Below, piece by piece: positions 1 through 51,280 of a DNA stretch of 64,000 nucleotides. Made by a program: the position numbers and the translations under genes. This stretch comes from Pseudomonas poae. Lineage in GTDB: Bacteria > Pseudomonadota > Gammaproteobacteria > Pseudomonadales > Pseudomonadaceae. How positions within the stretch are numbered: the first letter of the stretch is position 1; each line of letters begins with the position of its first letter. Location: assembly GCA_028869255.1 (NCBI GenBank), contig CP110972.1, positions 2,671,001 through 2,735,000 of the forward strand, given 5' to 3'. The notes under the pieces are model-generated. The model was not told where the DNA came from, ran no database searches, and worked only from the letters and a program-made list of their open reading frames with translations.

Positions 1-2002
1 TCTTCGGCTCTGACGGTTTCATGTTGCGACGTTCATCCGCGTCGGCAATGTGCACCTTCATGGCTTTCAATTGTTCAACGCTGCGGCCCGGAAACTCCTT
101 TTGCAGGTTCGCGATCGCCAGGTCCTGTCGAGTGGGCAGCGGCGCTTTGAACACCTTTAGCGCGTGAACAAGCTGTTCGTGCTGGGTGGCGAAGGCTTGC
201 GTAGCTTGCTGATAATGCTGCGGTGTATAGAGACCGTCTACCGGCTTGGTGTAAAGCCCCTGCATCAGGCCCCAATCCAACAGAATGTTGATCCCATAGT
301 TGTCCATCACAGCAGCCTCCTCAGTCGTGCGGGGTTCCAGACGGCTGAGGGCAATGATTTCCTGGTAACTCATGCTGCGCGAACACCCGGCGCCACCCAG
401 ACGCTCGGCGAGTGCAACCCCCAGCCGCAAGTCTGCCCACTCCGAAGAGCCCATGCGCAATGTCGAGGGAATCCCCCGTACCAGGAACTCAGGCGCTGCA
501 CTTGCGAGGAACAGGTGGGCCGCCAGTGGGGCGGCCCTGGGATCGAGCAGCGGGTTAAGCTTGAGATGAGCTTCAAGGTCCTCACGCACCTGCGCAAGGG
601 GCCGTCCGCTGTTGTTGGCCTGATACAGGTCATACCCGGCGACGGTCCCGGGGCGGCCAGGGGCATCAGGATCAATCTGCAACTTGATGGCGGCGATAAA
701 CCATTGCCTGCGCTCCTGATCCGACAGTTGTGGGGTACCCGATGCACCCACGAAGCGCCGATTGTTGGCGAAGGTATCGCCTAACAGCAGGGCCGTATCG
801 TCATGCAGCAACCGATCAAGAAAATGATCGGCAAGATGCCGCAATACTGCGGGGTTGTTCAGGCCCAGGATGCCCCCGGCGTCCAGCCGCCCCAACAGGT
901 GGAATGCGCTCGATTCGCTTGGAACGGCGTTATCGTTCAACGTGACCAAATCGGCTCTGTCGGCAGCAGACAAGACCCCCGGTGACCAATTGTCGGCTAA
1001 CAGGCCGGAATAATTGCCGTGGGGTGGTGGAGGCGGCAAGGATGCAGTGAGCCAGCGGACGGCATTGCGCAACTCGCCCACCGTCTTGGGTAGCGCCAAC
1101 CCGTGGGATTGCAGAGCATCCTCAATCGACACCGTGCCCCCTTCGCTGCCAACCAGCGCCGAGGTGCTGCTTACCTGCACTTGCAGATCGGACAGCGACA
1201 CTGCTTCCTCATCGGGTTTCTGGGCGATAAGTGGCGTAAGAACGCTTGCCAGATGGGCACGTTCATCCAACGCGTCAATGGCGGTTCTGGCGGTTTGCAC
1301 CCGGCTCTGAAGTTCGGTTTTTTTCTCGGGTGTCGGCGCAGACCAGTCGGTCGCCGACAGCTCCTGCCGGGCTCGTGTTACGTCGCCGTCGCCGGTGGGC
1401 GGTGTCACGCCATACCAGCGCAGGATCGCATTGCGCGAAAAGCTGTCGTCGCCAGGGCCCGCATACGGCAAGCCCTTGCCTTCGGAATCGAGGGCTCGCG
1501 CAGCCGCGCGTAACTTTGTACTGGCTTGCCACCAACCCGATGCATCGTTGGGGGTGAATGTTTTATTACTCGATGTACTGTAGTAACTGAATGTACCAGT
1601 GACCGAATCCGGCTTGACGACCACCGTCGATAATGCAACGCCCTGCGTCAAGAAGAACGCCTTCACTTCAGGCGCATTGATCGCACGTCGGTAGGCATCG
1701 TAGAGCGGGAAAATCGTCGTATTGGCCGGGACCTGGACTTTCTTGTCTGCCGCGCTCCCCAAGGCCACTGCGCCCAGCGTGGTTTGAAGTGCACGGTCAG
1801 CAGCTGAAGTCGTCTCAGCCGAAGGCGTGGTCAGGGGTGGGAGGGTCCATGAGGTTGTTTGCGTGGTTGCTGCCGGCGGTTCAGCGCTGCGCTTGGCGCG
1901 AACGGCAGCATCGGGTGCGGGGGTGGGGGCAAGTGCTTGTACAGACGACAGCACCGGTGGAGTGAACGTGTTGGCCCAATGGCCTGACGAGATATTCGAC
2001 AT
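1..2002 (-). CDS. Large protein of unknown function, C-terminus beyond the window
   Basis: An uninterrupted reading frame runs from an ATG at 2002 leftward through base 2, giving at least 667 residues. An AGGAAAT ribosome-binding sequence lies just upstream of the ATG. The protein begins MSNISSGHWANTF and has no signal peptide or membrane segment in the part visible. Residues 20-75 are rich in Pro, Ala and Thr and look disordered. From about residue 95 the sequence is a globular, mostly helical-looking domain (VPANTTIFPLYDAYRRAINA), with tyrosine- and tryptophan-rich stretches later on. I do not recognise a family. Pseudomonas species carry several very large proteins of this kind, some of them toxin-like, but nothing visible here establishes that role. 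The frame is real: it has no stop over 2 kb, an SD sequence, and normal codon use. Confidence 0.8.
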   Translation of the reverse strand, partial: MSNISSGHWANTFTPPVLSSVQALAPTPAPDAAVRAKRSAEPPAATTQTTSWTLPPLTTPSAETTSAADRALQTTLGAVALGSAADKKVQVPANTTIFPLYDAYRRAINAPEVKAFFLTQGVALSTVVVKPDSVTGTFSYYSTSSNKTFTPNDASGWWQASTKLRAAARALDSEGKGLPYAGPGDDSFSRNAILRWYGVTPPTGDGDVTRARQELSATDWSAPTPEKKTELQSRVQTARTAIDALDERAHLASVLTPLIAQKPDEEAVSLSDLQVQVSSTSALVGSEGGTVSIEDALQSHGLALPKTVGELRNAVRWLTASLPPPPPHGNYSGLLADNWSPGVLSAADRADLVTLNDNAVPSESSAFHLLGRLDAGGILGLNNPAVLRHLADHFLDRLLHDDTALLLGDTFANNRRFVGASGTPQLSDQERRQWFIAAIKLQIDPDAPGRPGTVAGYDLYQANNSGRPLAQVREDLEAHLKLNPLLDPRAAPLAAHLFLASAAPEFLVRGIPSTLRMGSSEWADLRLGVALAERLGGAGCSRSMSYQEIIALSRLEPRTTEEAAVMDNYGINILLDWGLMQGLYTKPVDGLYTPQHYQQATQAFATQHEQLVHALKVFKAPLPTRQDLAIANLQKEFPGRSVEQLKAMKVHIADADERRNMKPSEPK

Positions 2003-33355: not shown

Positions 33356-35292
<1,937 letters not shown>

Positions 35293-35302
35293 GGAGACCC
35301 CC

Positions 35303-36055: not shown

Positions 36056-36087
36056 GGCCGGCAGAATGGGCCTCTGTGGCGAACAGG

Positions 36088-36190: not shown

Positions 36191-36235
36191 CGCTCGCCAC
36201 GGGGTAGGTGTAATGCATAAAAGAGGACTTGAAGA

Positions 36236-36868: not shown

Positions 36869-36943
36869 GGATTCACCAGGAACCACGCCAAAGAGCCTGG
36901 TCCGGAAAAAGCTGAGCGCCTCCCCTTTGGAATGCAATCGAAT

Positions 36944-37030
36944 GTGGGAGCGGGCTTGCTCGCGAAAGCGGTGTATCAGGTGTCATCTATATGACTGACA
37001 CATCGCTTTCGCGAGCAAGCCCGCTCCCAC
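36944..37030. repeat. REPIN, GTGGGAGCGGGC family, between nicF and nicT
   Basis: Arms GTGGGAGCGGGCTTGCTCGC onward and the complement ending CCGCTCCCAC. It fills most of the 293-base gap between nicF and nicT, so nicT may need its own promoter in 37031-37161. Confidence 0.87.
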
Positions 37031-37161
37031 ACTAGATCACCTCCAACAGGGAAGTCTCATTCTTCTGACACTGCCTTTGGAAGTCGCTTCTACAGCACTC
37101 CGAAGTGCTGGAACAAAAGCGGCTGTATAAAAACCATAAGTCACCGCCAGGAGACACCCCG

Positions 37162-38472: not shown

Positions 38473-38500
38473 CAACAACAATTTCTGCGGATGAATCACC

Positions 38501-39577
38501 ATGCACGTTTTTTTCAAAAGCTGCGCGCTGCTGGTCGCGGTCGGCCTGTGTGCCGGCACCGCGCAGGCGGCGGACAAGGTCATTTTCGACACCGATTTCA
38601 ACGTGCTCAACGATGACGGCCAAGCCTTTATCATGCTCGCCCAGTTGCACGCGCAAAAACGCATCGACCTGCTGGGCATGACCCTGGTCAGCGGTAACGC
38701 CAGGGTCGACCAGGAACAGGTCGACGCCCTCAAGGCAGTGGAACGCATGGGCGTAGAGAAAGAAATCGGCGTCTACTCGGGCGCCGCCTACCCGCTGCTG
38801 CATGACTACGCCACCTATGAGGCAGAAAAAGCCCTGTTCGGCTCGGGCTGGCCGGGGGCATTCAAGCACCCGCGCCCGACGTCGGCGGCGCAGTTGGTCG
38901 CGCCACCGGATGGCCTGGCCACTCACACCCAACTGCGCAAGGAGACCGCCGCGCAATTTATCGTCGACAGCGTACGCGCCAACCCGCACCAGGTGACCAT
39001 TCTTGCCGTCGGCCCGCTCACCAACGTCGCCCTGGCGATCCGCTCCGCACCGGATATCGTGCCGCTGATCAAGCGCATCGTGTACATGGGCGGCGCCCTG
39101 GAGATCCCGGGCAACACCACGCCGGCGGCGGAATTCAACTGGTGGTTCGACCCGGAGGCCGCGAAGATCGTATTGCGCTCGCCGATCGAACACGTGATTT
39201 TCCCGAATGACGTGTGCGAGAAAGTCACCTTCGACAAAGCGGTGTACCAGCGGGTGATTGCACAAAAAGGCGCGATTGCCGATTTGTACAAACATGAGTT
39301 CGGGCCGCGGTTCGACAAAGACCCGAGCTACCACAGCTTCACCTGGGACAGCCTGCCGGCGCTGTACCTGGTCCGCCCAGAGATCGTCACCGAATCCCGC
39401 GAATTGTGGGTGGATGTGGACGCGACCTTCGGCGCCGACTACGGCCGCGCACTGGGTTACAAGCAAGACGCACCAGTGGGTACGCAAAAGGCCACGGTGG
39501 TGTTCGGCGTCGACCAGCAGAAATTCTGGGACGGCTACGTCAACCTCGTGACGCTGCCGACGCCGGTCAAGCACTGA
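38501..39577 (+). CDS. Periplasmic nucleoside hydrolase
   Basis: This 358-residue member of the inosine-uridine nucleoside hydrolase family has a signal peptide (MHVFFKSCALLVAVGLCAGTAQA), so it acts in the periplasm. The calcium-binding N-terminal motif reads FDTDFNVLNDDGQAFIML, a variant of DTDxGxDDxxA with a longer loop. Others are VTILAVGPLTNVALAIR, KRIVYMGGALEIPGNTTPAAEFNWWFDPEAAKIVL, and a second metal site near HSFTWD. It starts 28 bases after nicT and is probably cotranscribed, suggesting that it releases nicotinate or nicotinamide from ribosides outside the cytoplasm. That substrate is inferred. Confidence 0.88.
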   Translation: MHVFFKSCALLVAVGLCAGTAQAADKVIFDTDFNVLNDDGQAFIMLAQLHAQKRIDLLGMTLVSGNARVDQEQVDALKAVERMGVEKEIGVYSGAAYPLLHDYATYEAEKALFGSGWPGAFKHPRPTSAAQLVAPPDGLATHTQLRKETAAQFIVDSVRANPHQVTILAVGPLTNVALAIRSAPDIVPLIKRIVYMGGALEIPGNTTPAAEFNWWFDPEAAKIVLRSPIEHVIFPNDVCEKVTFDKAVYQRVIAQKGAIADLYKHEFGPRFDKDPSYHSFTWDSLPALYLVRPEIVTESRELWVDVDATFGADYGRALGYKQDAPVGTQKATVVFGVDQQKFWDGYVNLVTLPTPVKH

Positions 39578-39614: not shown

Positions 39615-42314
39615 TTAGCCCGCTACCGCAAACCCGCGCTGCAGATCTTCGATCAGCGCCGCCACATCCTCCAGGCCGATATGCAGGCGCACCACCGGGT
39701 TCAGCTCGCGATCCACCGCGCTTTCACGGTCGCGGGTATCGGCCACGGTGACCAGGCTTTCGTAGCCGCCCCACGAAGCGCCCAGCCCGAACAGCTGTAA
39801 ACCATCAATAAAGCGCTCGACATAACCCGGATCGGCATACGCCAGCTCAAACGACAACAAACCATTGCTGCCGCTGAAGTCCCGACGCCACAGCGCATGG
39901 CCGGGGTGCTCGGGCAATGCCGGGTGGAACACGCGCTTGACCTGAGGCTGCGCCTGCAACCATTGGGCAATGTCCAGCGCCTGGCGCTCATGCACATCCA
40001 GGCGTGAGGCCAGGGTGCGTGCGCCGCGCAGGATCAGGTAGGCATCGTCGGCACTCACCGCATTGCCGAAGGTGTCGCTCATTTTGCCCAGCGCCGGCCA
40101 GACCGCCTCGGTGGTGCACACGCTGCCCATCATCACGTCGCTGTGGCCGCCCAGGTATTTGGTCAGGGCCATGATCGAGATATCCGCCCCCAATGCCAGC
40201 GGCCGGTACAGATAGCCCGAGCCCCAGGTGTTATCGACCGCCAGCAGGATATTGCGCGGTTTGCACAACGCCGCAAGCGCCGGCAGGTCGCACAGCTCAT
40301 ACAGCAGCGAACCGGGCACTTCGGCATAGACCAGCTTGGTGTTGGCTTGCAGTTGCGCTTCCAGGCACTTTGCATCCGGCGCAAAGTAGCTGACCTCGAT
40401 GCCGAACGGCTGCAAAAACTCGCGAGCCAGTTTGCGCACCGGCGAATACACCGCATCGGTGATCAGCACATGGTCGCCGGGGCGCAGGTAGGCCAGAAAC
40501 ACCTGCGCCGCAGCCGCCAGCCCCGTGCCATAGAGCCGCGTGCGATAGCCGCCCTCAAGCTCGCTGACCAGGTCTTCCAAGGCGTGGGAGGTCGGGTTGC
40601 CGCGTGCGCCGTAGGTCAGCACGCGCTCACTGTCGCGACGGGCACGCGCGTCACGCATCTGCGCCAGGTTGTCGAACAGCACCGTGCTCAAGCGCGTAAT
40701 CGGCACATTGACCGCACGGCCGCCGTGGCCCTTTTCGGTGCGGGCGGCGTGGATCAAGCGGGTGCGCACGCGTGACGGCGGCGCCAGCGGCTTGAGGCTG
40801 GCGATTTCTGCGGCGCTCATCTGTGCCAACAGGCCAATTTCCCAGGCCAGGTACTGGCGCGCCGCATCCTTGTTGCCGCTGTGGCGGTCGTGGGTGAAAA
40901 ACAGGAAGTCGATGCACTCTGCATCGGCTGGGGTGTGCGGGTCTTCGCAAACCGGCAGGCCCGCGTCGGCCCAGGCGTTGAGACCACCGTCGAGCAATCG
41001 GGCCGGCAGCCCCTCGGCGGCAAATGCGGCCAGCGCAGGGTCATCCGCCACCAGCACCAACGGGCGGTGATCGGCCTTCAACAGCGAGCGAATCGACCAC
41101 TGCGAGCCGGCAATATGCCCCTTGCGGTACACCATGCTCGGGCGCAGGTCGATCAGGTTTACATCGTTCAATTCCAGCGCCAACGCCTGAGCACTGATCA
41201 ACGGCAAGGGCTCGTAGGCCACCGGCTGCAGCACCGACAACGCCAGGCCACTGGCGATGCCGCCACGCAATACATAGGCCTCATGTCCCAACTGACGCAG
41301 CCAACTGGCGACAATCGGCGCACGCACGCCATCGCTGTCCACCAGCACAATGCGCGCCTGGCGCACGCCGATATACAGGTCGGTGGACTGGATCAACTGC
41401 CCGCCCGGCGTATGTTGCGCGCCGGGCAAACTGCCGAGGGCAAATTCCTCGGCGGTGCGCACATCACACAGGAACAGGCTGCGCTGCGCGTCATCCGCCC
41501 ATTGGCGAACCTGATCCGCAGACACCTCAACCACCCCTGCCCGCTCCGCCAGTTGCCGTGCAGCCTGACGCTGCCGGGTCAGGTCACTGCTGACCGGCTC
41601 GGCATACCGCCGCGTGCTGCCGTGCTCCAGTTGCAAATCTTCCAGGTACCAGCCCTGGGTGCCGTTTTCCAAGGCGAAGATCGGGTTCTTCAGGCCCAGG
41701 TTGATCAGGGTTTGCGCGCCGATAATGCTGCGGGTGCGCCCGGCGCAGTTGACCACGATCGGTGTGCGCTCGTCCGGCACCAGGTCATGCACGCGGTAGC
41801 CCAGCTCACCATTCGGGCAGCAGATGGAACCGGGAATGGTCATCTTGCGGTACTCCTCGAACGGCCGACCGTCGAGCACCACCAGCGGCTCGCCACGTGC
41901 CTGCCACTCAGCCAATTGCCGGGCGGTGACGTGGGGCGTATGGCTGGCCTCCTCGACCAGTTCACCAAACGCCTTGGACGGCACATGCACACCGGCAAAC
42001 AGCTGCAAACCTGCGGCCTGCCAGCCATCGGCGCCACCTTCCAGCACCTGCACACGGGTGTAGCCCAATGCGTGCAAACGTGCCGCCGTACGCGCCGCCA
42101 CTGCACCGCCATTCTGGTCGTAGATCACCAGGCGCACCTGCGGGTTGGGCGCCAGCCGGCGTACCTCCAGCTCCAGGCGGCTATAGGGCAGGTTCACCCC
42201 ATGGAACAGGTGGGCTTCGCCGTATTGCCCGTGCTCGCGCACGTCGAACACGGCGATTTCCTGCCCGTCGAACAGCCATTGCTGCAGTTGACTTGGGGTG
42301 ATGGTCTGGCTCAT
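39615..42314 (-). CDS. Four-rhodanese / PLP-dependent C-S lyase fusion protein
   Basis: This 899-residue cytoplasmic protein holds four rhodanese domains at about 5-105, 125-232, 262-360 and 372-455, then a cystathionine gamma-synthase/beta-lyase-type PLP domain at about 515-895. Only the second rhodanese keeps the catalytic Cys (Cys190 in VNCAGRTRS); the first (IYDQNGG), third (LVDSDGV) and fourth (VADDPAL) have lost it. The PLP domain has the cofactor Lys719 (SIMALTKYLGGHSDVMMG) and the LYGTGLAA and DNTWGSGYLY blocks. The likely activity is C-S cleavage of a sulfur amino acid, with the released sulfur taken as a persulfide by Cys190. It is the last gene of the ten-gene run from 50185. Confidence 0.92.
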   Translation of the reverse strand: MSQTITPSQLQQWLFDGQEIAVFDVREHGQYGEAHLFHGVNLPYSRLELEVRRLAPNPQVRLVIYDQNGGAVAARTAARLHALGYTRVQVLEGGADGWQAAGLQLFAGVHVPSKAFGELVEEASHTPHVTARQLAEWQARGEPLVVLDGRPFEEYRKMTIPGSICCPNGELGYRVHDLVPDERTPIVVNCAGRTRSIIGAQTLINLGLKNPIFALENGTQGWYLEDLQLEHGSTRRYAEPVSSDLTRQRQAARQLAERAGVVEVSADQVRQWADDAQRSLFLCDVRTAEEFALGSLPGAQHTPGGQLIQSTDLYIGVRQARIVLVDSDGVRAPIVASWLRQLGHEAYVLRGGIASGLALSVLQPVAYEPLPLISAQALALELNDVNLIDLRPSMVYRKGHIAGSQWSIRSLLKADHRPLVLVADDPALAAFAAEGLPARLLDGGLNAWADAGLPVCEDPHTPADAECIDFLFFTHDRHSGNKDAARQYLAWEIGLLAQMSAAEIASLKPLAPPSRVRTRLIHAARTEKGHGGRAVNVPITRLSTVLFDNLAQMRDARARRDSERVLTYGARGNPTSHALEDLVSELEGGYRTRLYGTGLAAAAQVFLAYLRPGDHVLITDAVYSPVRKLAREFLQPFGIEVSYFAPDAKCLEAQLQANTKLVYAEVPGSLLYELCDLPALAALCKPRNILLAVDNTWGSGYLYRPLALGADISIMALTKYLGGHSDVMMGSVCTTEAVWPALGKMSDTFGNAVSADDAYLILRGARTLASRLDVHERQALDIAQWLQAQPQVKRVFHPALPEHPGHALWRRDFSGSNGLLSFELAYADPGYVERFIDGLQLFGLGASWGGYESLVTVADTRDRESAVDRELNPVVRLHIGLEDVAALIEDLQRGFAVAG

Positions 42315-42341: not shown

Positions 42342-42989
42342 TTACTGCAACGCCAACGAACGCTCGCCCGGTGCTACTTCGCGACCCTTGGCATAGGCAC
42401 GCTGCACCGCCGGCCGCGCTTTGATGCGCAAGCGCCAGGCCTGGATATGCGGGTAGTCCGTCAAGGCCTGGCCCTGACGCAACGGCTGGATCCACGGGAA
42501 GATCGCCATATCGGCCACCGAGTATTCACCGGCCACAAACGGCACTTCGCCCAGGCGCTGTTCCAGCACGCGATACAGGCGCGTGGCTTCGGCATTCAGC
42601 AGGTCGAGGGCGAATGGAATCGGCTCCGGCGCCTTCTCCTTGAACACCTGCAGCTGGCTCAAGTACGGGGTGATATGCCCGACTTGCCAGAACAGCCACT
42701 CCTGCACCTTTTGCCGCTCGGCAGTGCCGGCCGGCGGCAGGAATTGCCCGGCGCCGTCGGCCAGGTAATTCAGGATCGCACCGGACTCGAACAGGCTCAG
42801 CGGGGTGTCGGGGCGATGGTCGACAATCGCCGGAATCCGCGCATTGGCGCTGATGCGCTGGAAGCTCGCTTGCTGCTGCTCACCTTCGCGGATATTCACC
42901 GGCAGCAGGCGGTATTCAAGCCCAAGCTCTTCGAGCAGGATGCCGACTTTCAGGCCGTTGCCCGTAGGCCAGTAATACAGGTCAATCAT
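42342..42989 (-). CDS. Glutathione S-transferase family protein, YfcG-like
   Basis: A 215-residue protein with a thioredoxin-like N-terminal domain (MIDLYYWPTGNGLKVGILLEELGLEYRLLPVNI) and an all-helical C-terminal domain (LFWQVGHITPYLSQL, YSVADMAIFPWI). It matches the nu-class YfcG/YghU group, which binds two glutathiones and has disulfide reductase activity; the Thr-Asn pair in PTGNG fits that group. Conserved NARIPAIVDH and LFESGAILNYLA are intact. The ATG at 42989 starts the canonical N-terminus. The gene follows the cupin gene after a REPIN and precedes the rhodanese fusion by 27 bases, consistent with a thiol or persulfide role. Confidence 0.92.
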   Translation of the reverse strand: MIDLYYWPTGNGLKVGILLEELGLEYRLLPVNIREGEQQQASFQRISANARIPAIVDHRPDTPLSLFESGAILNYLADGAGQFLPPAGTAERQKVQEWLFWQVGHITPYLSQLQVFKEKAPEPIPFALDLLNAEATRLYRVLEQRLGEVPFVAGEYSVADMAIFPWIQPLRQGQALTDYPHIQAWRLRIKARPAVQRAYAKGREVAPGERSLALQ

Positions 42990-43018
42990 AAAAACCTCTG
43001 GATGAACGCGGTCAACAG

Positions 43019-43122: not shown

Positions 43123-43722
43123 TCAGGCATAGGCCTTAATCGACGGCGCCATGTGCGAGGCGTTGTAGTTGAGGATGCGCCCGTCGGCTTCCACGCCGTA
43201 ACGGCCATTCAGCGATTCAAGCGGCAAGCCGTAGAGGTGGAAATGCAGGGTCGCCTGCTCGCCTTCAACCTTGATGCCGTGCAGGTCTTCGCCGAGAAAC
43301 GAAATCGAGGTGCCTGGCTGCACGATCACTTCTTTTTCCAGGCTCAGGGTGGTGAAGCCCGGCTCGCGGCCTTCATCGCTGCGTGCATACACGTAGTTGA
43401 TTTCCTGGCCTTCGACCGCGCTGATGATCGCCCAGGTTTCGTGGTTGTGCGCGATTGTGCTTTTACCCGGCAACAGCGAGTTGAGGTACAGGGTCGGGGT
43501 GTCGCCGTCGTCATTCAGGCGATAGCGGAACGCAGTGCTGCCCTGCCCCGGTACAGGCGCGGGGAATGCGTCGAAGTTGAACAGGTCGCGACGTTCGGCC
43601 AGTTGCTCGAGCAAGCCGACGATTTCCACCAGCGCCGCACGGTCTACGCCGCGCTGGTTGATGACGCGGATCTGCTGCAAAAACGTTTCGATAACGGCGG
43701 CACGGCTTTCGATACTCATCAC
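43123..43722 (-). CDS. Cysteine dioxygenase-like cupin (thiol dioxygenase)
   Basis: This 199-residue cupin resembles type I cysteine dioxygenases and 3-mercaptopropionate dioxygenases. The iron triad appears as His92 and His94 (IAHNHETWAII) and His148 (EDLHGI), with a spacing like that of mammalian CDO (86/88/140). The expected reaction is oxygenation of a free thiol to a sulfinate. The substrate may be cysteine, 3-mercaptopropionate or another small thiol; sequence alone does not decide. It lies directly downstream of the ABC ATPase gene, 13 bases apart, and upstream of the GST and rhodanese-fusion genes. Confidence 0.85.
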   Translation of the reverse strand: MMSIESRAAVIETFLQQIRVINQRGVDRAALVEIVGLLEQLAERRDLFNFDAFPAPVPGQGSTAFRYRLNDDGDTPTLYLNSLLPGKSTIAHNHETWAIISAVEGQEINYVYARSDEGREPGFTTLSLEKEVIVQPGTSISFLGEDLHGIKVEGEQATLHFHLYGLPLESLNGRYGVEADGRILNYNASHMAPSIKAYA

Positions 43723-43735: not shown

Positions 43736-44560
43736 TCAGACAGACAGGCTGTAACGGCTCAAATTGGTCAACAGGTACGGGTCATGGGCGATAGGGCCGC
43801 GGCGCCCCGAATCGCCCAGGGCATGGCGCAAGAACGACTGGGTGCGTTCGCTGGCCGGGTTCTGGAAGATCTGCGCGGCGCTGCCATGCTCCACAATCAC
43901 GCCGTTTTCGGTGAAGTACACGACATCGCTGATCTCTTCGGCGAAACGCATTTCATGGGTGACCAGCACACAGGTCATGCCCTCTTCGGTCAGCTCGCGG
44001 ATCACCGTCAGCACTTCGCCAACGGTTTCCGGGTCGAGCGCTGAGGTCACTTCATCGAACAGAATCAACTCCGGGCGCATCGCCAGGGCACGCGCAATCG
44101 CCACGCGTTGCTGCTGGCCGCCGGACAGTTGGCCAGGATAGGCATCGGCCTTGTGTTCCATGCGCACTTTGGCCAACAGTGCCCGGGCGTCTTTTTCCGC
44201 CTCGGCGCGGTTGCGCCCCAGCACCTTGCGTGGGGCGATCACCAGGTTTTCCAGCACCGACAAGTGCGGGAACAGGTTGTATTGCTGGAACACAAACCCC
44301 ACACGCTTACGCAGTTCAATGCGCTGGGCTTCCTGGGCCAGGGTGTCGACCTGGGTCTGGCCCACGCGAATGCTGCCGCGCTGGGGCTGCAACAGCCCGG
44401 TGATGCAGCGCAGGATCGTGGATTTGCCCGAGCCCGACGGGCCGATGATCGACACCGCCTGGCCGCGCAGCACATCGAGGTCGATGCCCTTGAGCACCGG
44501 GTTGGTGCCGAACGACAGGTGCACATCCCGCAGGCTCACCAGGGGTTCAATAGAAGGCAT
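43736..44560 (-). CDS. Amino-acid ABC transporter ATP-binding protein
   Basis: A 274-residue ATPase of the polar amino acid uptake (PAAT) family: Walker A GPSGSGKST, Q-loop FVFQQYNLFPHLSVLEN, signature LSGGQQQRVAIARAL, Walker B LILFDEVTSALDPETV, and the H-loop LVTHEMRFAEEISDVVYF. These features match GlnQ/HisP-type ATPases. About 25 residues are appended after the usual end (residues about 250-274). It energises the two permeases encoded upstream; the ATG at 44560 overlaps the permease stop by 14 bases. Confidence 0.95.
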   Translation of the reverse strand: MPSIEPLVSLRDVHLSFGTNPVLKGIDLDVLRGQAVSIIGPSGSGKSTILRCITGLLQPQRGSIRVGQTQVDTLAQEAQRIELRKRVGFVFQQYNLFPHLSVLENLVIAPRKVLGRNRAEAEKDARALLAKVRMEHKADAYPGQLSGGQQQRVAIARALAMRPELILFDEVTSALDPETVGEVLTVIRELTEEGMTCVLVTHEMRFAEEISDVVYFTENGVIVEHGSAAQIFQNPASERTQSFLRHALGDSGRRGPIAHDPYLLTNLSRYSLSV

Positions 44561-45230
44561 AACGGCGCTCCAGGTGTTGGGTGAGACGGGAAATCGGGTA
44601 GCAGTAAGCAAAGAACAGCACCAGCAGGCTCAGGTAGATCACCACGGTGAAGCCGGTCAGGTTCACGGTGTTGCTGGCGATCTGCGCGGTGTCGATCACG
44701 TCATGCACGCCCACCAGGGAGGCCAGCGCGGTGCCCATGGTGACCACTGCGTAGAGGTTCATCCACGGCGGCAACATGCGCTTGAAGCACTGCGGCAGGA
44801 TGATCGAACGGAATAATTGGCCCCGGGTAAACGCCAGCGAACGCGCCGCCTCCCATTGGGTGCTGGGGATCGAGCCGATGGCGCCCCGGAAGATCTCCGC
44901 CACGTTCGCGCTGGCCGGCAAGGCCAGGCCGATCGTGACCTTGACCCAGTCCGGAAACGCCACATAGCTGTTGCCGATCTGGATCTCGAACGGGAACACG
45001 TAGGTGGTGAAATAAATCAGCACCAGCCACGGCGCATTGCGAAACACCTGCACCCACAGCCGCGCCACCACGCCCAGCGGCGATAACGCCAGTGCGCCGA
45101 TCAACAGTCCCAGCACCGAGCCGATGGCAATCGCCAACAGGCTGATCAGGATGTTCTGGCCAAAACCGGCCACCAGTGCCGGCGACCATTGCAGCAACGC
45201 CGACAACACCGGGAATGAATCAATGTCCAT
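44547..45230 (-). CDS. Amino-acid ABC transporter permease
   Basis: A 227-residue membrane protein with about five hydrophobic segments, of the HisM/GlnP type: GFGQNILISLLAIAIGSVLGLLIGALAL, VFRNAPWLVLIYFTTYVFPF, and the EAA loop AARSLAFTRGQLFRSIILPQCFKRMLPPWMN. It overlaps the gene on either side. With the other permease it forms the heterodimeric channel of the transporter. Confidence 0.94.
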   Translation of the reverse strand: MDIDSFPVLSALLQWSPALVAGFGQNILISLLAIAIGSVLGLLIGALALSPLGVVARLWVQVFRNAPWLVLIYFTTYVFPFEIQIGNSYVAFPDWVKVTIGLALPASANVAEIFRGAIGSIPSTQWEAARSLAFTRGQLFRSIILPQCFKRMLPPWMNLYAVVTMGTALASLVGVHDVIDTAQIASNTVNLTGFTVVIYLSLLVLFFAYCYPISRLTQHLERRYAFY

Positions 45231-45945
45231 AGCCAGGCATCCTCAGGCGCGCTTCCAGCCAGCGCCCCACACAATTGACGATAAAACTCAGCAAGCCGAA
45301 AAAGCTCAGGATCAGGATCATCAGTTCCAGCACGTTGTCGCTTTGCGTCCAGATCATGATCGCGGCGTAGGTGATATCCCCTACGGCAATCGCGGAAGCC
45401 ACGGCGGTCATCTTCACCAGATCGATCAGGTTATTGATCAGCGAGGGCAAGGCAAAACGCAGCGCCAGCGGCAACTGCACATTCCACAGCAATTGACGGC
45501 TGCTGAACGCCAGGGAGCTGGCGGCTTCCAGCGTCACGGCGGGCACCGCTTCGATCCCGGCGCGCAACGCCTCGGCATGGAACGCGCCCTTGTGCAGGGA
45601 AATCACGATCACCACCCAGGCAAACGGCGTAAGCGGGTTGGCCGCGCCGACGGCTTGGGTCAGCAGCATGTTCAACACCAGGAACGCGCAGTACAGCTGC
45701 ACCAGCGTCGGGGTATTGCGCGTGACCTCCACAAACACCCGGGCCGGCCTGGCCAGCCAGGGGTTGCCCGAGGTCAGCATCGCCGCCAGGGTGATCCCCG
45801 CCAGCAGACTGCCGATGATGGTGAACAGGCACAGCAGGCCGGTGGTCAATGCGCCCTGGACCAGGCTGCCGCGCTGGTAGGCATCCAGCAGGAAGTTGTA
45901 GTTCAGGCCAAAACCGGCGGCCCAGTGCACGAACGCCTCCATCAT
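45220..45945 (-). CDS. Amino-acid ABC transporter permease
   Basis: A 241-residue HisQ/GlnP-type permease: GALTTGLLCLFTIIGSLLAGITLAAML, VFVEVTRNTPTLVQLYCAFLVLNMLL, then the EAA loop AASSLAFSSRQLLWNVQLPLALRFALPSLINNLIDLVKMTAVASAIAV. The ATG at 45945 overlaps the aminotransferase stop (ATGA), which fixes the start; the longer open frame is the aminotransferase 3' end in another frame. Two different permeases indicate a heteromeric PAAT transporter. Confidence 0.94.
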   Translation of the reverse strand: MMEAFVHWAAGFGLNYNFLLDAYQRGSLVQGALTTGLLCLFTIIGSLLAGITLAAMLTSGNPWLARPARVFVEVTRNTPTLVQLYCAFLVLNMLLTQAVGAANPLTPFAWVVIVISLHKGAFHAEALRAGIEAVPAVTLEAASSLAFSSRQLLWNVQLPLALRFALPSLINNLIDLVKMTAVASAIAVGDITYAAIMIWTQSDNVLELMILILSFFGLLSFIVNCVGRWLEARLRMPGYGH

Positions 45946-47144
45946 CGCAACTTCCCACAGGCTGCCGCGATACGCCGTCCGGCCTCTGCGACGCTGGCGG
46001 TCGCGGTGGCAATCGACAGGCGAAACCACGGCGACAGCCCGTAGGCACTGCCCGCCACGCCGGCCACGCCCTCCTCCAGCAGCCAGGCGACCACATCCGC
46101 ATCGCTGTCGATGCGCTGGCCGTCCGGGCGCACACGCCCCAGCAGCCCGGCGCAGCGCACAAAAACGAAGAAGCCGCCCTGGGGTTCAAGGACGTCCAGG
46201 CCGTCGACGCTTTTCAGCGCCGCAACCAACCTATCGCGCCGCAGTTGATAAGCCGCCACCTGCTCCGCCAAAAATCCCAACCCGCCGGTATACGCCGCCA
46301 ACGCTGCGGCCTGGCCCACCGATGAGGCGCCGGAGGTGGATTGCGACTGCACCACGGCCATTGCATCGGTCAGGGTGCTCGGCCCCGCGCCAAAGCCGAT
46401 GCGCCAGCCGGTCATGGCGTAGGTCTTGGACACGCCGCCCACCAGCAGGCAACGCGCTTGCAGGTCCGGCGCAACGTTCAGCAGGCTCTGGGCCGGACGG
46501 CCGTCGAAGCGGATGTGTTCGTACAGCTCATCCAGCAGGATCAGCACCTGCGGATGGCGGCGCAGCACCTCGGCCAGCGCGCCCAGTTCGGCTGCGCTGT
46601 ACACCGCGCCACTGGGGTTGCCCGGACCATTGAGGATCAGCCAGCGCGTACGCTCGGTGATGTGTTGATCCAACTGCGCCGGCAGCAACTTGCAGCCCTG
46701 CGCCAGCTCGCACTCGATAAACACCGGTTCGCCGCCATTGAAGCGCACGCTGTCGGGAAATGACGGCCAGTACGGCGTCGGCACCAGCACTTGATCACCG
46801 TCGTCCAGAGTGGCGGCGAAGGCATTGAAGATAATCTGCTTGGCGCCATTGGCAATCACAATCGAGGCCAGTGGATAGTCCAGCTGATTTTCCTCGGCCA
46901 GCTTGCGCTGCACTGCAACCCGCAAGGCTTTTACACCGGGGGTCGGCGTGTACTTGGTCACACCGGCGGCAATCGCCGCGTAAGCCGCATGCTTGATGTG
47001 CTGCGGGGTGTCGAAATCCGGCTCGCCGGTGGTGAGATCAAGAATATCGCGACCGGCATCACGCAACTCGGTGGCGCGGGATTTGGCCGCAGCATTGGCC
47101 GACAGCGACACCCGCTGCACGCGCTGGGACAGGCGAACAGTCAT
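45942..47144 (-). CDS. Class I/II PLP-dependent aminotransferase
   Basis: A 400-residue aspartate-aminotransferase-like enzyme of fold type I: MTVRLSQRVQRVSLSANAAAKSRATELRDAGRDILDLTTGEPDFDTPQHIK at the start, NGAKQIIFNAF, LNGPGNPSGAVYS, LLDELYEHIRFDG, and the PLP lysine in GGVSKTYAMTGWRIGFGAG, with a C-terminal Arg-containing FRLSIATA for the carboxylate. It is placed between the permease and dehydrogenase genes with overlapping codons. It probably exchanges the amino group of the imported compound or of a product. Confidence 0.94.
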   Translation of the reverse strand: MTVRLSQRVQRVSLSANAAAKSRATELRDAGRDILDLTTGEPDFDTPQHIKHAAYAAIAAGVTKYTPTPGVKALRVAVQRKLAEENQLDYPLASIVIANGAKQIIFNAFAATLDDGDQVLVPTPYWPSFPDSVRFNGGEPVFIECELAQGCKLLPAQLDQHITERTRWLILNGPGNPSGAVYSAAELGALAEVLRRHPQVLILLDELYEHIRFDGRPAQSLLNVAPDLQARCLLVGGVSKTYAMTGWRIGFGAGPSTLTDAMAVVQSQSTSGASSVGQAAALAAYTGGLGFLAEQVAAYQLRRDRLVAALKSVDGLDVLEPQGGFFVFVRCAGLLGRVRPDGQRIDSDADVVAWLLEEGVAGVAGSAYGLSPWFRLSIATATASVAEAGRRIAAACGKLR

Positions 47145-48562
47145 GGCTGCACCTCAAGGACTCTGCCGGGGTTGAGCAGATTGTGCGGGTCCAGCGCCTG
47201 CTTGATGCGGCGCATCAGGTCCAGCTCTACCGGGCTTTTATAACGCGCAAGCATGCCGACCTTGCGCTGGCCGATGCCATGCTCGGCACTGATCGAACCG
47301 CCATGGGCGTGGGCGCTGTCATGCACCAGTACGCTCAGCTCGGCGTACTGGGCCATGTGCGCGTCGACTGTCGAATCCAGCGGATGGGCCACGTTGTAAT
47401 GCAGGTTGCCGTCGCCCAGGTGGCCGAAGGTGAAGTTACGCACGCCGGGGAAATGCTGCTGGAGCAGCGCATCGGTGTGCGCGACAAACGCCACCACCTG
47501 GGAAATCGGCACCGAGATATCGTGCTTCATATTGCGCCCGGCGCGCTTTTGCGCCTCGCTCATGTTCTCGCGCAGCAACCACAGTGCCTCGCTTTGCGCC
47601 AAGCTCTCGGCGATCAGTGCGTCAGCGATCAAGGCCTGCTCGAAGGCTTCGCCGAGTACGTGCTCGAAAGCCTCACGCGCATGGCGTTCACCGTGATTGT
47701 CGGAGAGTTCGATCAGCGCAAACCAGGGTTGGCTGGCAGCCTTGAACGGCTGCGGGCCGTCCGGAAACTGATCGCGCAGCAAGGCCAGGCAATCGGCGCT
47801 GAGCAATTCGAAAGCCGTCAAACTGGCGCCAAAACCGGCGCGGGCGTGGGACAAAAACGCCACCGCCTGGGCCAGCTCATCAAAGGCCAACAGCGCTGTA
47901 GCCTGGGCCTTGGGCAACGGAAACAGCTTCAAGGTGGCAGCGGTGATAATCCCCAGCGTGCCCTCACTGCCGATGTACAGATCGCGCAGGTCGTAGCCGC
48001 TGTTGTCCTTGCGCAAACCGCGCAGGCCGTGCCAGATCTCGCCTTCGGCGGTCACCACTTCCAGGCCGAGGGTCAGCTCGCGGGTGTTGCCGTAACGCAA
48101 AACAGCAGTGCCGCCGGCATTGGTGCCCAGGTTGCCGCCAATCGTGCAACTGCCCTGCGCGCCCAGGCTCAGCGGGAACAGGCGATCAGCCTCTCGCGCC
48201 ACTTCCTGAATGTGCTGCAGGATGCAGCCGGCTTCCACGGTCAGGGTGTCGTTGTCGGTATCGATGTTGCGTATGCGGTTCATGCGGTCGAGCAACAGCA
48301 ACACCGAGCGCCCACTGGCATCCGGCGTAGCGCCCGCCATCAGGCCGGTGTTGCCGCCCTGCACCACGATTGGCGCCTTCAGTGCCACGCAGGCGCGCAC
48401 CACCGCCGCCACTTCTTCAGTGTTGGCAGGGTGTACGACCGCAATCACCCGCCCGGTGTAGCGGCCCTGCTTGTCGGTGAGGCGGTGCGCCGCCTCCTCG
48501 CTGGTGTGTACATGGGCCGCGCCGAGCAGTTGTTGCAAGGTGGCGAACAACGCATCACTCAT
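47141..48562 (-). CDS. FAD-binding 2-hydroxyacid dehydrogenase (GlcD/D-2-HGDH type)
   Basis: A 473-residue flavoprotein of the vanillyl-alcohol-oxidase fold. FAD domain: IAVVHPANTEEVAAVVRACVALKAPIVVQGGNTGLMAGATP, SLGAQGSCTIGGNLGTNAGGTAVLRYGNTRELTLGLEVV and GYDLRDLYIGSEGTLGIITAATLKLFP. Substrate domain: HDISVPIS, GHLGDGNLHYNVAHP and SAEHGIGQRKVGML, with catalytic His residues. The family oxidises D-2-hydroxyacids such as lactate, 2-hydroxyglutarate or glycolate. It overlaps the binding-protein gene before it and the aminotransferase after it. In this context it may interconvert a hydroxyacid and the keto acid used by the aminotransferase. Confidence 0.92.
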   Translation of the reverse strand: MSDALFATLQQLLGAAHVHTSEEAAHRLTDKQGRYTGRVIAVVHPANTEEVAAVVRACVALKAPIVVQGGNTGLMAGATPDASGRSVLLLLDRMNRIRNIDTDNDTLTVEAGCILQHIQEVAREADRLFPLSLGAQGSCTIGGNLGTNAGGTAVLRYGNTRELTLGLEVVTAEGEIWHGLRGLRKDNSGYDLRDLYIGSEGTLGIITAATLKLFPLPKAQATALLAFDELAQAVAFLSHARAGFGASLTAFELLSADCLALLRDQFPDGPQPFKAASQPWFALIELSDNHGERHAREAFEHVLGEAFEQALIADALIAESLAQSEALWLLRENMSEAQKRAGRNMKHDISVPISQVVAFVAHTDALLQQHFPGVRNFTFGHLGDGNLHYNVAHPLDSTVDAHMAQYAELSVLVHDSAHAHGGSISAEHGIGQRKVGMLARYKSPVELDLMRRIKQALDPHNLLNPGRVLEVQP

Positions 48563-49361
48563 GGCTGTATTGCTCATGCAGATCGCGCAGGGCTTGGGAG
48601 GGCGCCATGCCGGTGCGCTCACCGAGCGCGATCAGGAAACCGCTTTTATGCCACTCGCGCACAATCGCATCGAGCCTGGCCTGGGTGTCGTGTTCGCCCT
48701 TGCGGATCCAGATCACCGATTTCGACGGGATCAGGTCGCCCGGCAACGGAATTTCATACCCGGCCCATTCGGCATCACTGAGCAAGGCATGCATGGTCGG
48801 GCTGACGTGTACCGCCGCCATGCAGCCATTGCCGCGCAGCGACAGCAACGATTCGGACTGGCTGCGGAACGCCTTGATCTGCGCGCCGTAGGTCTCCTGC
48901 AGCGGTTTGATAAAGTTGCTGCCCTGGGACACGCACACCGGCTTGTCCTTGAGGTCGGCCCACTGGGTGATGCCCGCGCCCTTGCGAATCAAGGCCGCGC
49001 CGCCGACTTCTTCATACGGCGTAGGCACGTAGTCGAGGATCTCGGCGCGCTCTTCGGTGAACTGCATATTGGCGATCAGCACATCGACCTTGCCCTGTTG
49101 CAGGAACTGCACGCGATTGGGCGCCAGCACCGAGACCGTCTTGGTCTCGACCCCCAGCGCCTGGCCGATGCCCTTGGCCAACTCGACGTTGTAGCCCAGG
49201 TGCTCGCCGGTCTTGGGGTCAATAGTGCCGAACGGCGGGCCGCTGAGGATTACGCCGACGCTGATGGCGTGGCGTTGCTGGATCTTGTCGAGGGTCGCGT
49301 CAGCCTGGGCGAAGCCGGCGCACAGGGTCAGGCCAAGTGCGGCGAGGGTTTTCAGCTGCAT
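48555..49361 (-). CDS. Amino-acid ABC transporter substrate-binding protein 2
   Basis: This 268-residue periplasmic binding protein of the PAAT type (SBP_bac_3) has a short signal peptide (MQLKTLAALGLTLCAGFAQA). The mature start ADATLDKIQQRHAISVGVILSGPPFGTIDPKTGEHLGYNVELAKGIGQ and the block VQFLQQGKVDVLIANMQFTEERAEILDYVPTPY are shared with the upstream paralogue. It has a pair of cysteines (KPVCVSQG and GNGCMAAV). It starts two bases after the stop of the paralogue. Confidence 0.93.
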   Translation of the reverse strand: MQLKTLAALGLTLCAGFAQADATLDKIQQRHAISVGVILSGPPFGTIDPKTGEHLGYNVELAKGIGQALGVETKTVSVLAPNRVQFLQQGKVDVLIANMQFTEERAEILDYVPTPYEEVGGAALIRKGAGITQWADLKDKPVCVSQGSNFIKPLQETYGAQIKAFRSQSESLLSLRGNGCMAAVHVSPTMHALLSDAEWAGYEIPLPGDLIPSKSVIWIRKGEHDTQARLDAIVREWHKSGFLIALGERTGMAPSQALRDLHEQYSHE

Positions 49362-49363
49362 GC

Positions 49364-50185
49364 TCAGGCGCCCTTGAACTGTTGTTGCAATTCGACCAAC
49401 GCGGGCGATGCCGGGCTGATGCGGTTGCGGGTCTGGGCTTCGATCAGCCAGCCGCTGCGGTGCAGCTCCTTGACGATCGGGTCGAGTTTGGCCTGAGTGT
49501 CGCTTTCGCCGCGACGGGTCCAGATCACCGACGGTGCCGGGTTGAGTTCCGGGCGGATCACGCGGTAGTCCTTCCATTCGGCGCTGTCGTTGAGCAGCGG
49601 GTTGATCAGGGTAGAGTCGTGTACCGCCGCCACGCAGTTGTTGCCACGCAGGGCCAACAGGGATTCGGAGGAGCTTTTGAACGCCTTGATCTGCGCGCCG
49701 AACTCGGTCAACGGCTTAACGTAGCTGCTGCCCTGGGAGGTGCATACCGGCTGGTCCTTGAGGTCTTCCCAGCGCGCGATCTTGCTGTCCTTGAGCACAG
49801 CCGCAGCGCCGCCGATGCGGTAGAACGGGGTCGGCACAAAGCCGAGAATCTCACCGCGCTCGGCGGTCCACTCCATGTTCGCAATCAGCAGGTCGACCTT
49901 GCCTTGCTGCAGGAACTGCACGCGGTTGGCCGGTAACACCGGCACCAGCTGCACCTGGGCCTGGAGTTGACGCCCCAGCTCGTTGGCCAGGTCCACGTTC
50001 AAGCCCTTGGGCTGCTGCGTGGCCGGGTCGATACTGCCGAACGGCCCACCGGACAACAACACGCCGACCACCAGCACATGGCGCTGCTCGATCTTGTCCA
50101 GGGTCGCATCGGCCTGCGCCGCCACACTGCCGCCCAGGGCGATCATCGACCCCAGGGCCACCGGCAACCATTTCTTGAACATCAT
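49364..50185 (-). CDS. Amino-acid ABC transporter substrate-binding protein 1
   Basis: This 273-residue periplasmic binding protein has a signal peptide (MMFKKWLPVALGSMIALGGSVAAQA). It is closely related to the next gene: ADATLDKIEQRHVLVVGVLLSGGPFGSIDPATQQPKGLNVDLANELGRQL, then NRVQFLQQGKVDLLIANMEWTAERGEILGFVPTPFY and KDQPVCTSQGSSYVKPL. It heads the minus-strand run and is divergent from the LysR gene. Two paralogous binding proteins for one transporter suggest two related ligands. Confidence 0.93.
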   Translation of the reverse strand: MMFKKWLPVALGSMIALGGSVAAQADATLDKIEQRHVLVVGVLLSGGPFGSIDPATQQPKGLNVDLANELGRQLQAQVQLVPVLPANRVQFLQQGKVDLLIANMEWTAERGEILGFVPTPFYRIGGAAAVLKDSKIARWEDLKDQPVCTSQGSSYVKPLTEFGAQIKAFKSSSESLLALRGNNCVAAVHDSTLINPLLNDSAEWKDYRVIRPELNPAPSVIWTRRGESDTQAKLDPIVKELHRSGWLIEAQTRNRISPASPALVELQQQFKGA

Positions 50186-50422: not shown

Positions 50423-51280
50423 ATGGCCATGTCGACCCTCGACCTTGAACTCCTGCGCACCTTTATCGCCGTGGTCGACCACCACAGCTTCGCCGAAGCC
50501 GGCACGCACCTGGCACGCACCCAGTCGTCTGTGACCCAGCATATGCAACGTCTGGAGCAGCAAGTGGGGGTCAGCCTGTTCGAAAAACGCGGCCGGCAAA
50601 AACAGCTGACCGAGCCCGGCATGCAGCTGCTGCGGCATGCCCGCCAGATGCTATCGCTGAATGATGACGCCTTGAATTCCCTGCGTGAGAGCAGCCTGAG
50701 CGGCGTGTTGCGCATCGGTTCGCCCCACGATATCGCCGACACTATCCTGCCGCCGATCCTCAGCCATATCGCCCGCTCCGCGCCGCGCCTGCGCCTGGAG
50801 ATAGACGTAGGGCGCAGCCCGTTCCTGATGGATGACCTGCACCGCGGCAAGGTCGACATGGTGATTTCCACCCGCTCCGATCCACACCTGGAAGGCTTTG
50901 CGCTACGTACATCGCCGGTGTGGTGGATCTGTTCGGCGCAGTACATCCACTCGCCGAGCGAGCCGCTGCCGCTGATCCTGGTGGATGAACCGAGCATCTA
51001 CCGGCGCTATGCGCTGGAGGCGCTGGAGCGGGCAAATATTCCCTGGCGCCAGGCGTACCTGGCGTCGAACCTGATCGGCATCAAGGCCGCCACCCGTGCA
51101 GGCTTGGGCGTGACGCCGCGCAGCATGGAAATGCTCGGGCCGGACATGCGCGTGCTGGGCGAGACGGATGGCTTGCCGCGCCTGCCCGAAGTCACCTATT
51201 ACCTGTGGATCCGGCCGAATACGGCGAACCCGATTGCGCGCAAGGCGTATGACTTGATTCGCGCCAGCCAGGGTTTGTGA
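50423..51280 (+). CDS. LysR-family transcriptional regulator of the adjacent sulfur/amino-acid operon
   Basis: This 285-residue regulator has an N-terminal winged helix (STLDLELLRTFIAVVDHHSFAEAGTHLARTQSSVTQHMQRLEQQVGVSLFEKRG) and an effector domain (SGVLRIGSPHDIADTILPPIL, then KVDMVISTRSDPHLEGF). The N-terminal part resembles the LrhA/PecT-like group. It is divergent from the binding-protein, dehydrogenase, aminotransferase and transporter genes and is the obvious candidate to control them. The ATG at 50423 is used; a second ATG lies two codons later. The ligand is unknown. Confidence 0.9.
   Translation: MAMSTLDLELLRTFIAVVDHHSFAEAGTHLARTQSSVTQHMQRLEQQVGVSLFEKRGRQKQLTEPGMQLLRHARQMLSLNDDALNSLRESSLSGVLRIGSPHDIADTILPPILSHIARSAPRLRLEIDVGRSPFLMDDLHRGKVDMVISTRSDPHLEGFALRTSPVWWICSAQYIHSPSEPLPLILVDEPSIYRRYALEALERANIPWRQAYLASNLIGIKAATRAGLGVTPRSMEMLGPDMRVLGETDGLPRLPEVTYYLWIRPNTANPIARKAYDLIRASQGL

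What the first reader, a model, noticed from the sequence alone, without database searches (positions are those of the whole stretch)
39615..42314. Four tandem rhodanese domains fused to a C-S-lyase-type PLP enzyme, three of them catalytically dead
Seen: four rhodanese-like units, only the second with the catalytic Cys (Cys190), then a complete cystathionine-lyase-type domain with PLP Lys719. Known: rhodaneses accept sulfane sulfur on the loop Cys, and PLP lyases of this class release thiols, H2S or persulfides. Inference: the PLP domain makes a reactive sulfur that passes within the chain to Cys190; the inactive copies may be scaffolds or binding surfaces.
Basis: partly seen in the sequence, partly recalled or inferred. 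Interest (0 to 1): 0.75.

Follow-up and report, generated by a model that had tools for sequence, protein, structure and literature searches.

The report
Rhodanese array fused to C–S lyase
A Pseudomonas makes one protein that joins a four-part sulfur-carrier enzyme to a carbon–sulfur bond-cutting enzyme; relatives suggest that the two work with an iron-dependent thiol-oxidising enzyme to break down sulfur-containing amino acids, though the exact substrate is still unknown.

Summary
Window 42314..39615 (minus strand) encodes one 899-aa protein: four rhodanese domains (only domain 2 has the loop Cys, Cys190) joined end to end to a cystathionine-beta-lyase-type PLP domain (Lys719). It is no artefact: 35 of 199 genomes of its genus carry it full length, and 120 of 120 listed proteins keep Cys190 and Lys719. 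One CAGRTRS loop, in domain 2, is also the make-up of the closest solved protein, 1yt8, and of unfused kin. The operon adds a LysR regulator, an amino-acid ABC transporter and a cupin whose only PDB relative is mercaptosuccinate dioxygenase. Elsewhere the same parts are separate neighbours; an unfused Advenella set is in print. In 30 unfused array loci a thiol-dioxygenase gene is nearby in 23, a lyase in 4; 20 of 80 cupin loci hold a dioxygenase fused to an array. Best reading: the lyase frees a thiol from an imported S-substituted cysteine, the dioxygenase oxidises it to a sulfinate that sheds sulfite, Cys190 makes thiosulfate. Substrate unproven.

The parts
39615..42314 (-). fused gene: four-rhodanese array + cystathionine-beta-lyase-type PLP domain, 899 aa
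42012..42299 (-). rhodanese domain 1 (residues 6-101), loop position Asp66, no Cys
   Evidence: Pfam best stretch
41619..41930 (-). rhodanese domain 2 (about residues 129-232), loop CAGRTRS with Cys190 (41745-41747); limits read from the model's secondary structure
41241..41531 (-). rhodanese domain 3 (about residues 262-358), loop position Asp326, no Cys; limits approximate
40947..41198 (-). rhodanese domain 4 (about residues 373-456), loop position Ala423, no Cys; limits approximate
39618..40778 (-). cystathionine-beta-lyase-type PLP domain (residues 513-899), PLP Lys719 (40158-40160)
42342..42992 (-). GST-family gene, closest solved relatives include disulfide-bond oxidoreductase YfcG; found in 6 of 13 longer Pseudomonas loci with the gene
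43123..43722 (-). Msdo-like cupin, predicted thiol dioxygenase (199 aa)
   Evidence: only PDB relative at E 0.001 is mercaptosuccinate dioxygenase 8vni, E 1e-34; invariant His pattern in A1
43736..44611 (-). ABC transporter ATPase, polar amino acid type (best NCBIfam hit cystine TcyN, below cut-off)
44547..45230 (-). ABC transporter permease
45220..46029 (-). ABC transporter permease (open frame; true start probably downstream)
45942..47144 (-). class I aminotransferase, nearest solved relative aspartate aminotransferase B (6f35)
47141..48562 (-). FAD-linked 2-hydroxy-acid dehydrogenase (relatives 3pm9, D-2-hydroxyglutarate dehydrogenase 6lpn)
48555..49367 (-). periplasmic amino-acid-binding protein 2 (start chosen by eye)
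49364..50185 (-). periplasmic amino-acid-binding protein 1
50423..51280 (+). divergent LysR regulator; 55% and 59% identical to the LysR genes beside the cupin in Variovorax L009 and Cupriavidus L010

Best explanation
The protein is a bifunctional enzyme of an operon that imports and breaks down an S-substituted cysteine. Step 1 (inferred): the ABC transporter imports it. Step 2 (fold and catalytic residues shown, activity inferred): the PLP domain does a beta-elimination, giving pyruvate, ammonia and a thiol. Step 3 (inferred from kinship): the operon's Msdo-like iron dioxygenase oxidises that thiol to a sulfinate, which releases sulfite. Step 4 (Cys190 shown, reaction inferred): the rhodanese array carries a sulfane sulfur on Cys190 and passes it to sulfite, giving thiosulfate; domains 1, 3 and 4 are scaffold. 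My leading substrate is an S-carboxyalkyl cysteine such as S-(2-succino)cysteine, whose thiol product would be mercaptosuccinate, the substrate of the characterised dioxygenase relatives. In the sequences compared the fusion has one origin, within Pseudomonas, by end-to-end joining of two neighbouring genes.
For: Gene content: in the 13 longer Pseudomonas loci L034-L046 the ABC transporter and cupin precede the array and lyase in 13 of 13, LysR is seen in 12 (L043 ends before it), GST in 6 and the aminotransferase in 9; the gene is broken in L034. Separate cupin, lyase and array neighbours stand in Caballeronia, Aminobacter and others. Of 80 cupin loci, lyase in 70, array in 65, both in 59. 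Advenella has LysR - Msdo - lyase - rhodanese - PAAT transporter; deleting Msdo restricted, and deleting LysR suppressed, growth on mercaptosuccinate (PMC5373536, section 25). The Variovorax cupin of L009 matches 8vni at 383 bits over its whole length, with array and lyase near it. Array-dioxygenase link: 23 of 30 unfused loci against 4 of 30 with a lyase; 0 of 11 lyase-only control loci hold such a dioxygenase (8 of the 11 are of the window's genus); 20 cupin-array fusions in 80 loci plus L062. In this genome too the unfused array overlaps a 3-mercaptopropionate-dioxygenase-type gene. One origin: the 15 Pseudomonas cluster lyases compared form one clade, 99/95. Not an E. coli-type cystathionine site: R58 is Ala in 12 of 12 fused sequences; D116 is Lys, Arg or Gln; R58 contacts the distal carboxylate of cystathionine in E. 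coli CBL (PMC5025676 passages).
Against: The window cupin is only 39% identical to the Variovorax Msdo and groups outside the Msdo clade (quick tree, modest support), so its thiol may differ. One genome, G391, carries both cupin types (L047 and L077). The paper that reports the unfused clusters suggests a different job for the rhodanese protein: help in making the cofactor of a molybdopterin sulfite oxidoreductase, not thiosulfate formation (PMC5373536 passages). I see no sulfane donor for step 4 in the operon unless the lyase makes one. The TauE-type exporter of L012 was found in none of the other clusters searched (0 of 80, 0 of 30, 0 of 13; controls 0 of 11). 6 of 30 unfused array loci have neither partner, and L051 has a lyase but no dioxygenase. 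11 of 80 cupin loci have a lyase but no array, 6 an array but no lyase. D116 varies in other lyases too. The aspartate-type aminotransferase and FAD dehydrogenase have no clear role in this scheme. No activity has been measured.
Confidence: 0.48

Rival explanations
1. First reader's channel in its strongest form, a cystine route. The PLP domain splits imported cystine into pyruvate, ammonia and thiocysteine; Cys190 takes the sulfane sulfur and frees cysteine; the cupin oxidises cysteine to its sulfinate; the aspartate-type aminotransferase turns that into pyruvate and sulfite; Cys190 persulfide plus sulfite gives thiosulfate.
For: Uses lyase, rhodanese, cupin and aminotransferase and needs no outside sulfane donor. 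Cystine-system models are the best NCBIfam hit for the ATPase and for one permease, second for one binding protein, third for the other permease and fifth for the other binding protein, all below cut-off. The aminotransferase is aspartate-type. The GST is YfcG-like, a disulfide oxidoreductase family.
Against: Array and dioxygenase go together mostly without a lyase. R58 and D116 are changed in the fused lyases, though cystine resembles cystathionine in shape (the shape argument is mine). C. diphtheriae C-S lyase and several CBLs use cystine poorly (PMC3784150 passages). The aminotransferase is missing from 4 of 13 fusion loci (L036, L037, L039, L040).
Confidence: 0.22
2. The rhodanese array serves sulfite removal indirectly, by supplying sulfur for the molybdenum cofactor of a sulfite-oxidising enzyme, as the Advenella paper proposes for Variovorax; the lyase and dioxygenase act as in the best explanation.
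For: Proposed in print (PMC5373536 passages); NCBIfam MoeB and MoeZ models, which include rhodanese parts, are among the below-cut-off hits of the unfused array.
Against: I saw no molybdenum-cofactor or sulfite-oxidase gene in the window operon; it gives no reason for fusing the array to a lyase or to the dioxygenase.
Confidence: 0.08
3. The PLP domain releases thiosulfate from S-sulfocysteine and the rhodanese runs from thiosulfate to a thiol acceptor.
For: Thiosulfate is the textbook rhodanese donor (recalled); loss of the acidic residue at D116 would suit an anionic S-substituent; 1yt8 is deposited as a thiosulfate sulfurtransferase.
Against: Gives the cupin no thiol substrate, though the array goes with such cupins.
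Confidence: 0.08
4. An ordinary methionine-biosynthesis cystathionine beta-lyase with a passenger rhodanese.
For: TIGR01324 score above its cut-off.
Against: The fused lyases lie with other cluster lyases and 7 solo Pseudomonas lyases in a 48-row group apart from the E. coli MetC group, 100/99, although one cluster lyase, Aminobacter L013 (a long branch), falls on the MetC side; R58 and D116 are changed; the operon carries uptake and thiol-oxidation genes; the genome holds at least five other relatives of the PLP domain.
Confidence: 0.05

Closest known systems
Four-rhodanese 'thiosulfate sulfurtransferase' of P. aeruginosa, PDB 1yt8 (with its unfused paralogue L025 in this genome, overlapping a 3-mercaptopropionate-dioxygenase-type gene)
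   Different: No PLP domain; the L025 array is in another clade of the array tree; domain-4 loop position is Cys, here Ala
Cystathionine beta-lyase, E. coli MetC (1cl1)
   Same: Fold, PLP Lys, Y56, Y111, D185, S339, W340, R372
   Different: R58 to Ala, D116 to Lys; separate group in the tree; carries four rhodanese domains
Msdo gene clusters of Variovorax paradoxus B4 and Advenella mimigardefordensis (in Advenella: LysR, Msdo, lyase, rhodanese, PAAT transporter)
   Same: Same set of parts; as described in PMC5373536
   Different: There rhodanese and lyase are two genes; here fused. The cupin here is 39% identical to the Msdo of Variovorax L009 and outside that clade. The B4 and Advenella sequences themselves were not compared, apart from 8vni
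Persulfide-dioxygenase-rhodanese fusions such as BpPRF and CstB (recalled; not compared here)
   Same: A sulfite-producing dioxygenase joined to a rhodanese parallels the cupin-array fusions
   Different: By recall that dioxygenase is of the ETHE1 metallo-beta-lactamase fold, not a cupin, and no PLP lyase is involved

Membership tests
Cystathionine beta-lyase (TIGR01324 / MetC) | Score above curated cut-off, PLP lysine and catalytic residues | tested here: met
   405.8 against 365.9; residues
Cystathionine beta-lyase (TIGR01324 / MetC) | E. coli MetC substrate-end residues R58 and D116 | tested here: not met
   Ala and Lys in P0001; R58 is Ala in 12 of 12 fused sequences compared. D116 also varies in other lyases of that table
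Cystathionine beta-lyase (TIGR01324 / MetC) | Groups with MetC in a tree | tested here: not met
   P0001 lies in a 48-row group of cluster and solo Pseudomonas lyases, apart from the 7-row group that holds E. coli MetC (100/99; root drawn at midpoint). The cluster lyase of Aminobacter, L013, a long branch, falls in the MetC-side group
Cystathionine beta-lyase (TIGR01324 / MetC) | Cleaves cystathionine | not testable with these tools
   needs enzyme assay
Four-rhodanese protein of the 1yt8 kind | Four rhodanese folds, single CAGRTRS loop in domain 2 | tested here: met
Four-rhodanese protein of the 1yt8 kind | Thiosulfate sulfurtransferase activity | not testable with these tools
   needs enzyme assay
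Msdo-type gene cluster | LysR, thiol-dioxygenase cupin, lyase, four-rhodanese array and amino-acid ABC transporter together | tested here: met
   window genes; description of the Advenella cluster
Msdo-type gene cluster | The cupin is a mercaptosuccinate dioxygenase | tested here: inconclusive
   8vni is the only PDB relative, but 39% identity to the Variovorax L009 Msdo and a place outside the Msdo clade

The most novel reading that the evidence does not exclude
The lyase, Msdo-type dioxygenase and four-rhodanese array form an unrecognised route for S-(2-succino)cysteine and like S-carboxyalkyl cysteines: beta-elimination to mercaptosuccinate, dioxygenation to succinate and sulfite, sulfuration to thiosulfate. 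This would be a 2SC breakdown route without acetylation and would give mercaptosuccinate dioxygenase a natural source of substrate. In Pseudomonas the first and last steps sit on one chain.
Probability: 0.25. Interest if true: 0.7.

Novelty: new variant of a known kind. Interest (0 to 1): 0.45.

Why it matters
Two kinds of natural fusion (array with lyase in Pseudomonas; dioxygenase with array in 20 of 80 cupin loci and in L062) tie three enzymes, annotated apart as cystathionine beta-lyase, rhodanese and 'cysteine dioxygenase', into one probable pathway. That questions the 'cystathionine beta-lyase' name that the fused proteins carry in databases and gives a testable job to the four-rhodanese proteins, for which a search for PA2603 with rhodanese found no paper. 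If the substrate proves to be S-(2-succino)cysteine, it adds a new exit for a fumarate-damage product.

Tried and rejected
Frame artefact or chance fusion: rejected. Fusion outside Pseudomonas: in 398 genomes of the phylum the only full-length single-frame matches in the list shown were G000 and G083, both of the window's genus (only weaker matches were cut from the list). That list gave one open-frame length for array and lyase of G391, which looked like a fusion; two stop codons lie between them, so it is none (L047). Viral contigs: 3 stretches matched a pattern, none encodes a relative. The nine plasmid records with at least 80% cover each hold two pieces; in the five that I fetched, array and lyase are separate frames. 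Conserved sulfite exporter beside the clusters: not found. Promoters and terminators: no more than in shuffles. Whether the PLP site and Cys190 face each other: not tested, as no coordinates are given and the enzyme is probably a tetramer (recalled). VIA rows 13 onwards often give ranges such as 119..899; I read those as lyase matches with stray aligned residues, not as a fold across the linker. Cupin and array trees are 'quick' with no bootstrap, and the 3MDO row is very long. In the lyase tree the Aminobacter cluster lyase L013 does not join the other cluster lyases.

Print searches: 0 papers each; listings;'s 12 papers I read passages and one section of PMC5373536 alone. Only open-licence PMC papers are held, so absence in print is not shown. 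The Variovorax papers (PMC4215256, PMC3019817) are not held and were not read.

Dropped or partial: the 30 unfused array loci are 28 of the 36 array-type places visible (left out: the G000 and G083 paralogues, G188, G168, G526, G233, G575, G308) plus 2; places below the list's end were not seen. The 80 cupin loci are the best 80 of 581 confirmed, by similarity to a Paraburkholderia cupin, so they lean to Burkholderiales; some are cut by contig ends, and one record with a cupin-array fusion (L111) is titled Pantoea. The 7 array-lyase fusions are all Pseudomonas and include L154 (broken frame) and L159 (short lyase part); an eighth Pseudomonas locus, L161, shows an array without a lyase. One cupin-array fusion (L132) is cut by its contig end. 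The 120 proteins are P0001 and the next 119 of 7381 matches, so close relatives. L045 was dropped from the alignment after a frame error.

Full report

Live and dead sites. Cys190, Arg193 and Arg195 of the CAGRTRS loop, Asp66, Asp326, Ala423, Lys719, Asp694, Tyr568, Tyr623 and Trp848 are the same in 120 of 120 listed proteins, P0001 included. The one CAGRTRS loop in domain 2 is also found in the unfused arrays compared and in 1yt8. The domain-4 position is not always dead: 1yt8, the unfused paralogue L025 and two distant fusions (L037, L040) have Cys there. In the lyase, the E. coli MetC positions Y56, Y111, D185, K210, S339, W340 and R372 are kept, while R58 is Ala in all 12 fused sequences, in the Msdo-cluster lyases L009, L010 and L047 and in the seven Pseudomonas solo lyases L027-L033; D116 is Lys, Arg or Gln in the fusions, but it also varies in other lyases. 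[quoted passage not shown] coli (PMC5025676, passages); the role of D116 is recalled from Lodha et al. 2010, of which I saw only the title in a reference list. I take this as mild evidence against cystathionine or cystine and for an anionic S-substituent.

Neighbourhood. Upstream on the same strand lie a YfcG-like GST, a cupin, an ABC ATPase, two permeases, an aminotransferase, an FAD hydroxy-acid dehydrogenase and two binding proteins, with a divergent LysR gene. In relatives the core is LysR, binding protein, permeases, ATPase, cupin and fusion; GST, aminotransferase, dehydrogenase and second binding protein come and go (L036, L037, L039 and L040 show none of the four). The window cupin matches no Pfam or NCBIfam family at E 0.001 and one PDB sequence, mercaptosuccinate dioxygenase 8vni. 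In Variovorax L009 the order is LysR | Msdo - array - a periplasmic binding protein that I take, from recall, for the TctC type - lyase, with a cupin matching 8vni over its whole length (383 bits).

What the relatives say. In 80 loci with cupins of this kind, 70 have the lyase, 65 the array and 59 both within about 9 kb; 4 have neither. Twenty carry a cupin-array fusion, and each of the twenty also has a stand-alone cupin, seven a stand-alone array; 7 carry an array-lyase fusion, all Pseudomonas, two of these not intact. I read one cupin-array fusion in full, L062, 734 codons with stop. In 30 unfused array loci a thiol-dioxygenase gene lies in the stretch in 23, within 500 bases in 17; a lyase in 4; neither in 6. 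In 11 lyase-only loci used as control there is no such dioxygenase. The array therefore goes with thiol dioxygenases in general (3MDO type or Msdo type), and the lyase with the Msdo-like type. The 3MDO label of the reference used rests on its PDB matches (289 bits to 3-mercaptopropionate dioxygenase). A lyase tree puts 48 cluster and solo Pseudomonas lyases in one group apart from the E. coli MetC group (100/99), with Aminobacter L013 as the exception, and the 15 Pseudomonas cluster lyases in one clade (99/95), next to solo Pseudomonas lyases and then to the Msdo-cluster lyases. The cupin of the window, in contrast, groups with the Paraburkholderia type rather than with Msdo, so the operon looks like a mosaic.

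How it most likely works. Shown: the fold, the residues, the operon and its repeated assembly, the fusions. Inferred: transport, beta-elimination, thiol oxidation, sulfite formation and its capture by the Cys190 sulfane sulfur. The link to sulfite rests on the characterised Msdo enzymes, which give sulfinosuccinate that falls apart into succinate and sulfite (PMC5373536, passages and section 25). The same paper connects a rhodanese protein of Variovorax to sulfite removal, but through cofactor synthesis for a molybdopterin enzyme; thiosulfate formation is my reading. The step that connects the lyase to Msdo is also my proposal: an S-(2-succino)cysteine-type substrate would yield mercaptosuccinate. 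Two 2SC routes are in print, one by a monooxygenase and one by a succino lyase, both through acetylation (PMC9706529, abstract and start of introduction); no held paper contains both 'mercaptosuccinate' and '2-succino'. The strongest rival is the cystine route, which uses the aminotransferase too and needs no outside sulfane donor.

Verdict. A real, conserved two-part protein, seen only in Pseudomonas in what I sampled. The parts and their clustering as separate genes are in print for Advenella and Variovorax; I found the fusion itself in none of the searches. It is a new variant of a known kind, with a moderately interesting and easily tested pathway prediction.

Noticed in passing
window 27182-39577: A run of genes that reads like a nicotinic-acid degradation set: xanthine-dehydrogenase/cytochrome-like 27182-30886 (-), 32004-33056 (-), FAD hydroxylase-like 33362-34495, hydrolase-like 34492-35292, maleate-isomerase-like 35303-36055, isochorismatase-like 36236-36868, MFS 37105-38472 (Pfam only for the MFS and the nucleoside hydrolase; the rest read by eye, names recalled). 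It ends with a nucleoside hydrolase with a signal-peptide-like start, 38501-39577, perhaps to free nicotinate from a riboside.
   Followed up: no
L062:8040-10241 (-): Msdo-like cupin fused in frame to a four-rhodanese array (734 codons with stop); similar fusions in 20 of 80 cupin loci, each with a stand-alone cupin too and seven with a stand-alone array.
   Followed up: partly
L047 and L077 (both from genome G391): One genome holds both an Msdo-type cluster and a second-type cupin cluster with lyase, aminotransferase and dehydrogenase, which suggests the two cupin types act on different thiols.
   Followed up: partly
L034 (G080) and L154 (Pseudomonas californiensis): The fused gene is broken into several frames. 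In L034 the ATPase and dehydrogenase genes are broken too, which looks like a noisy assembly; in L154 the break lies within the array. Described only.
   Followed up: no
L027-L033: Some Pseudomonas carry a solo lyase that is sister to the fused lyases, with R58 also Ala, and no thiol dioxygenase or array in the stretch; a GST gene about 39% identical to the window's lies close by in L027, L029, L030, L031 and L033.
   Followed up: partly
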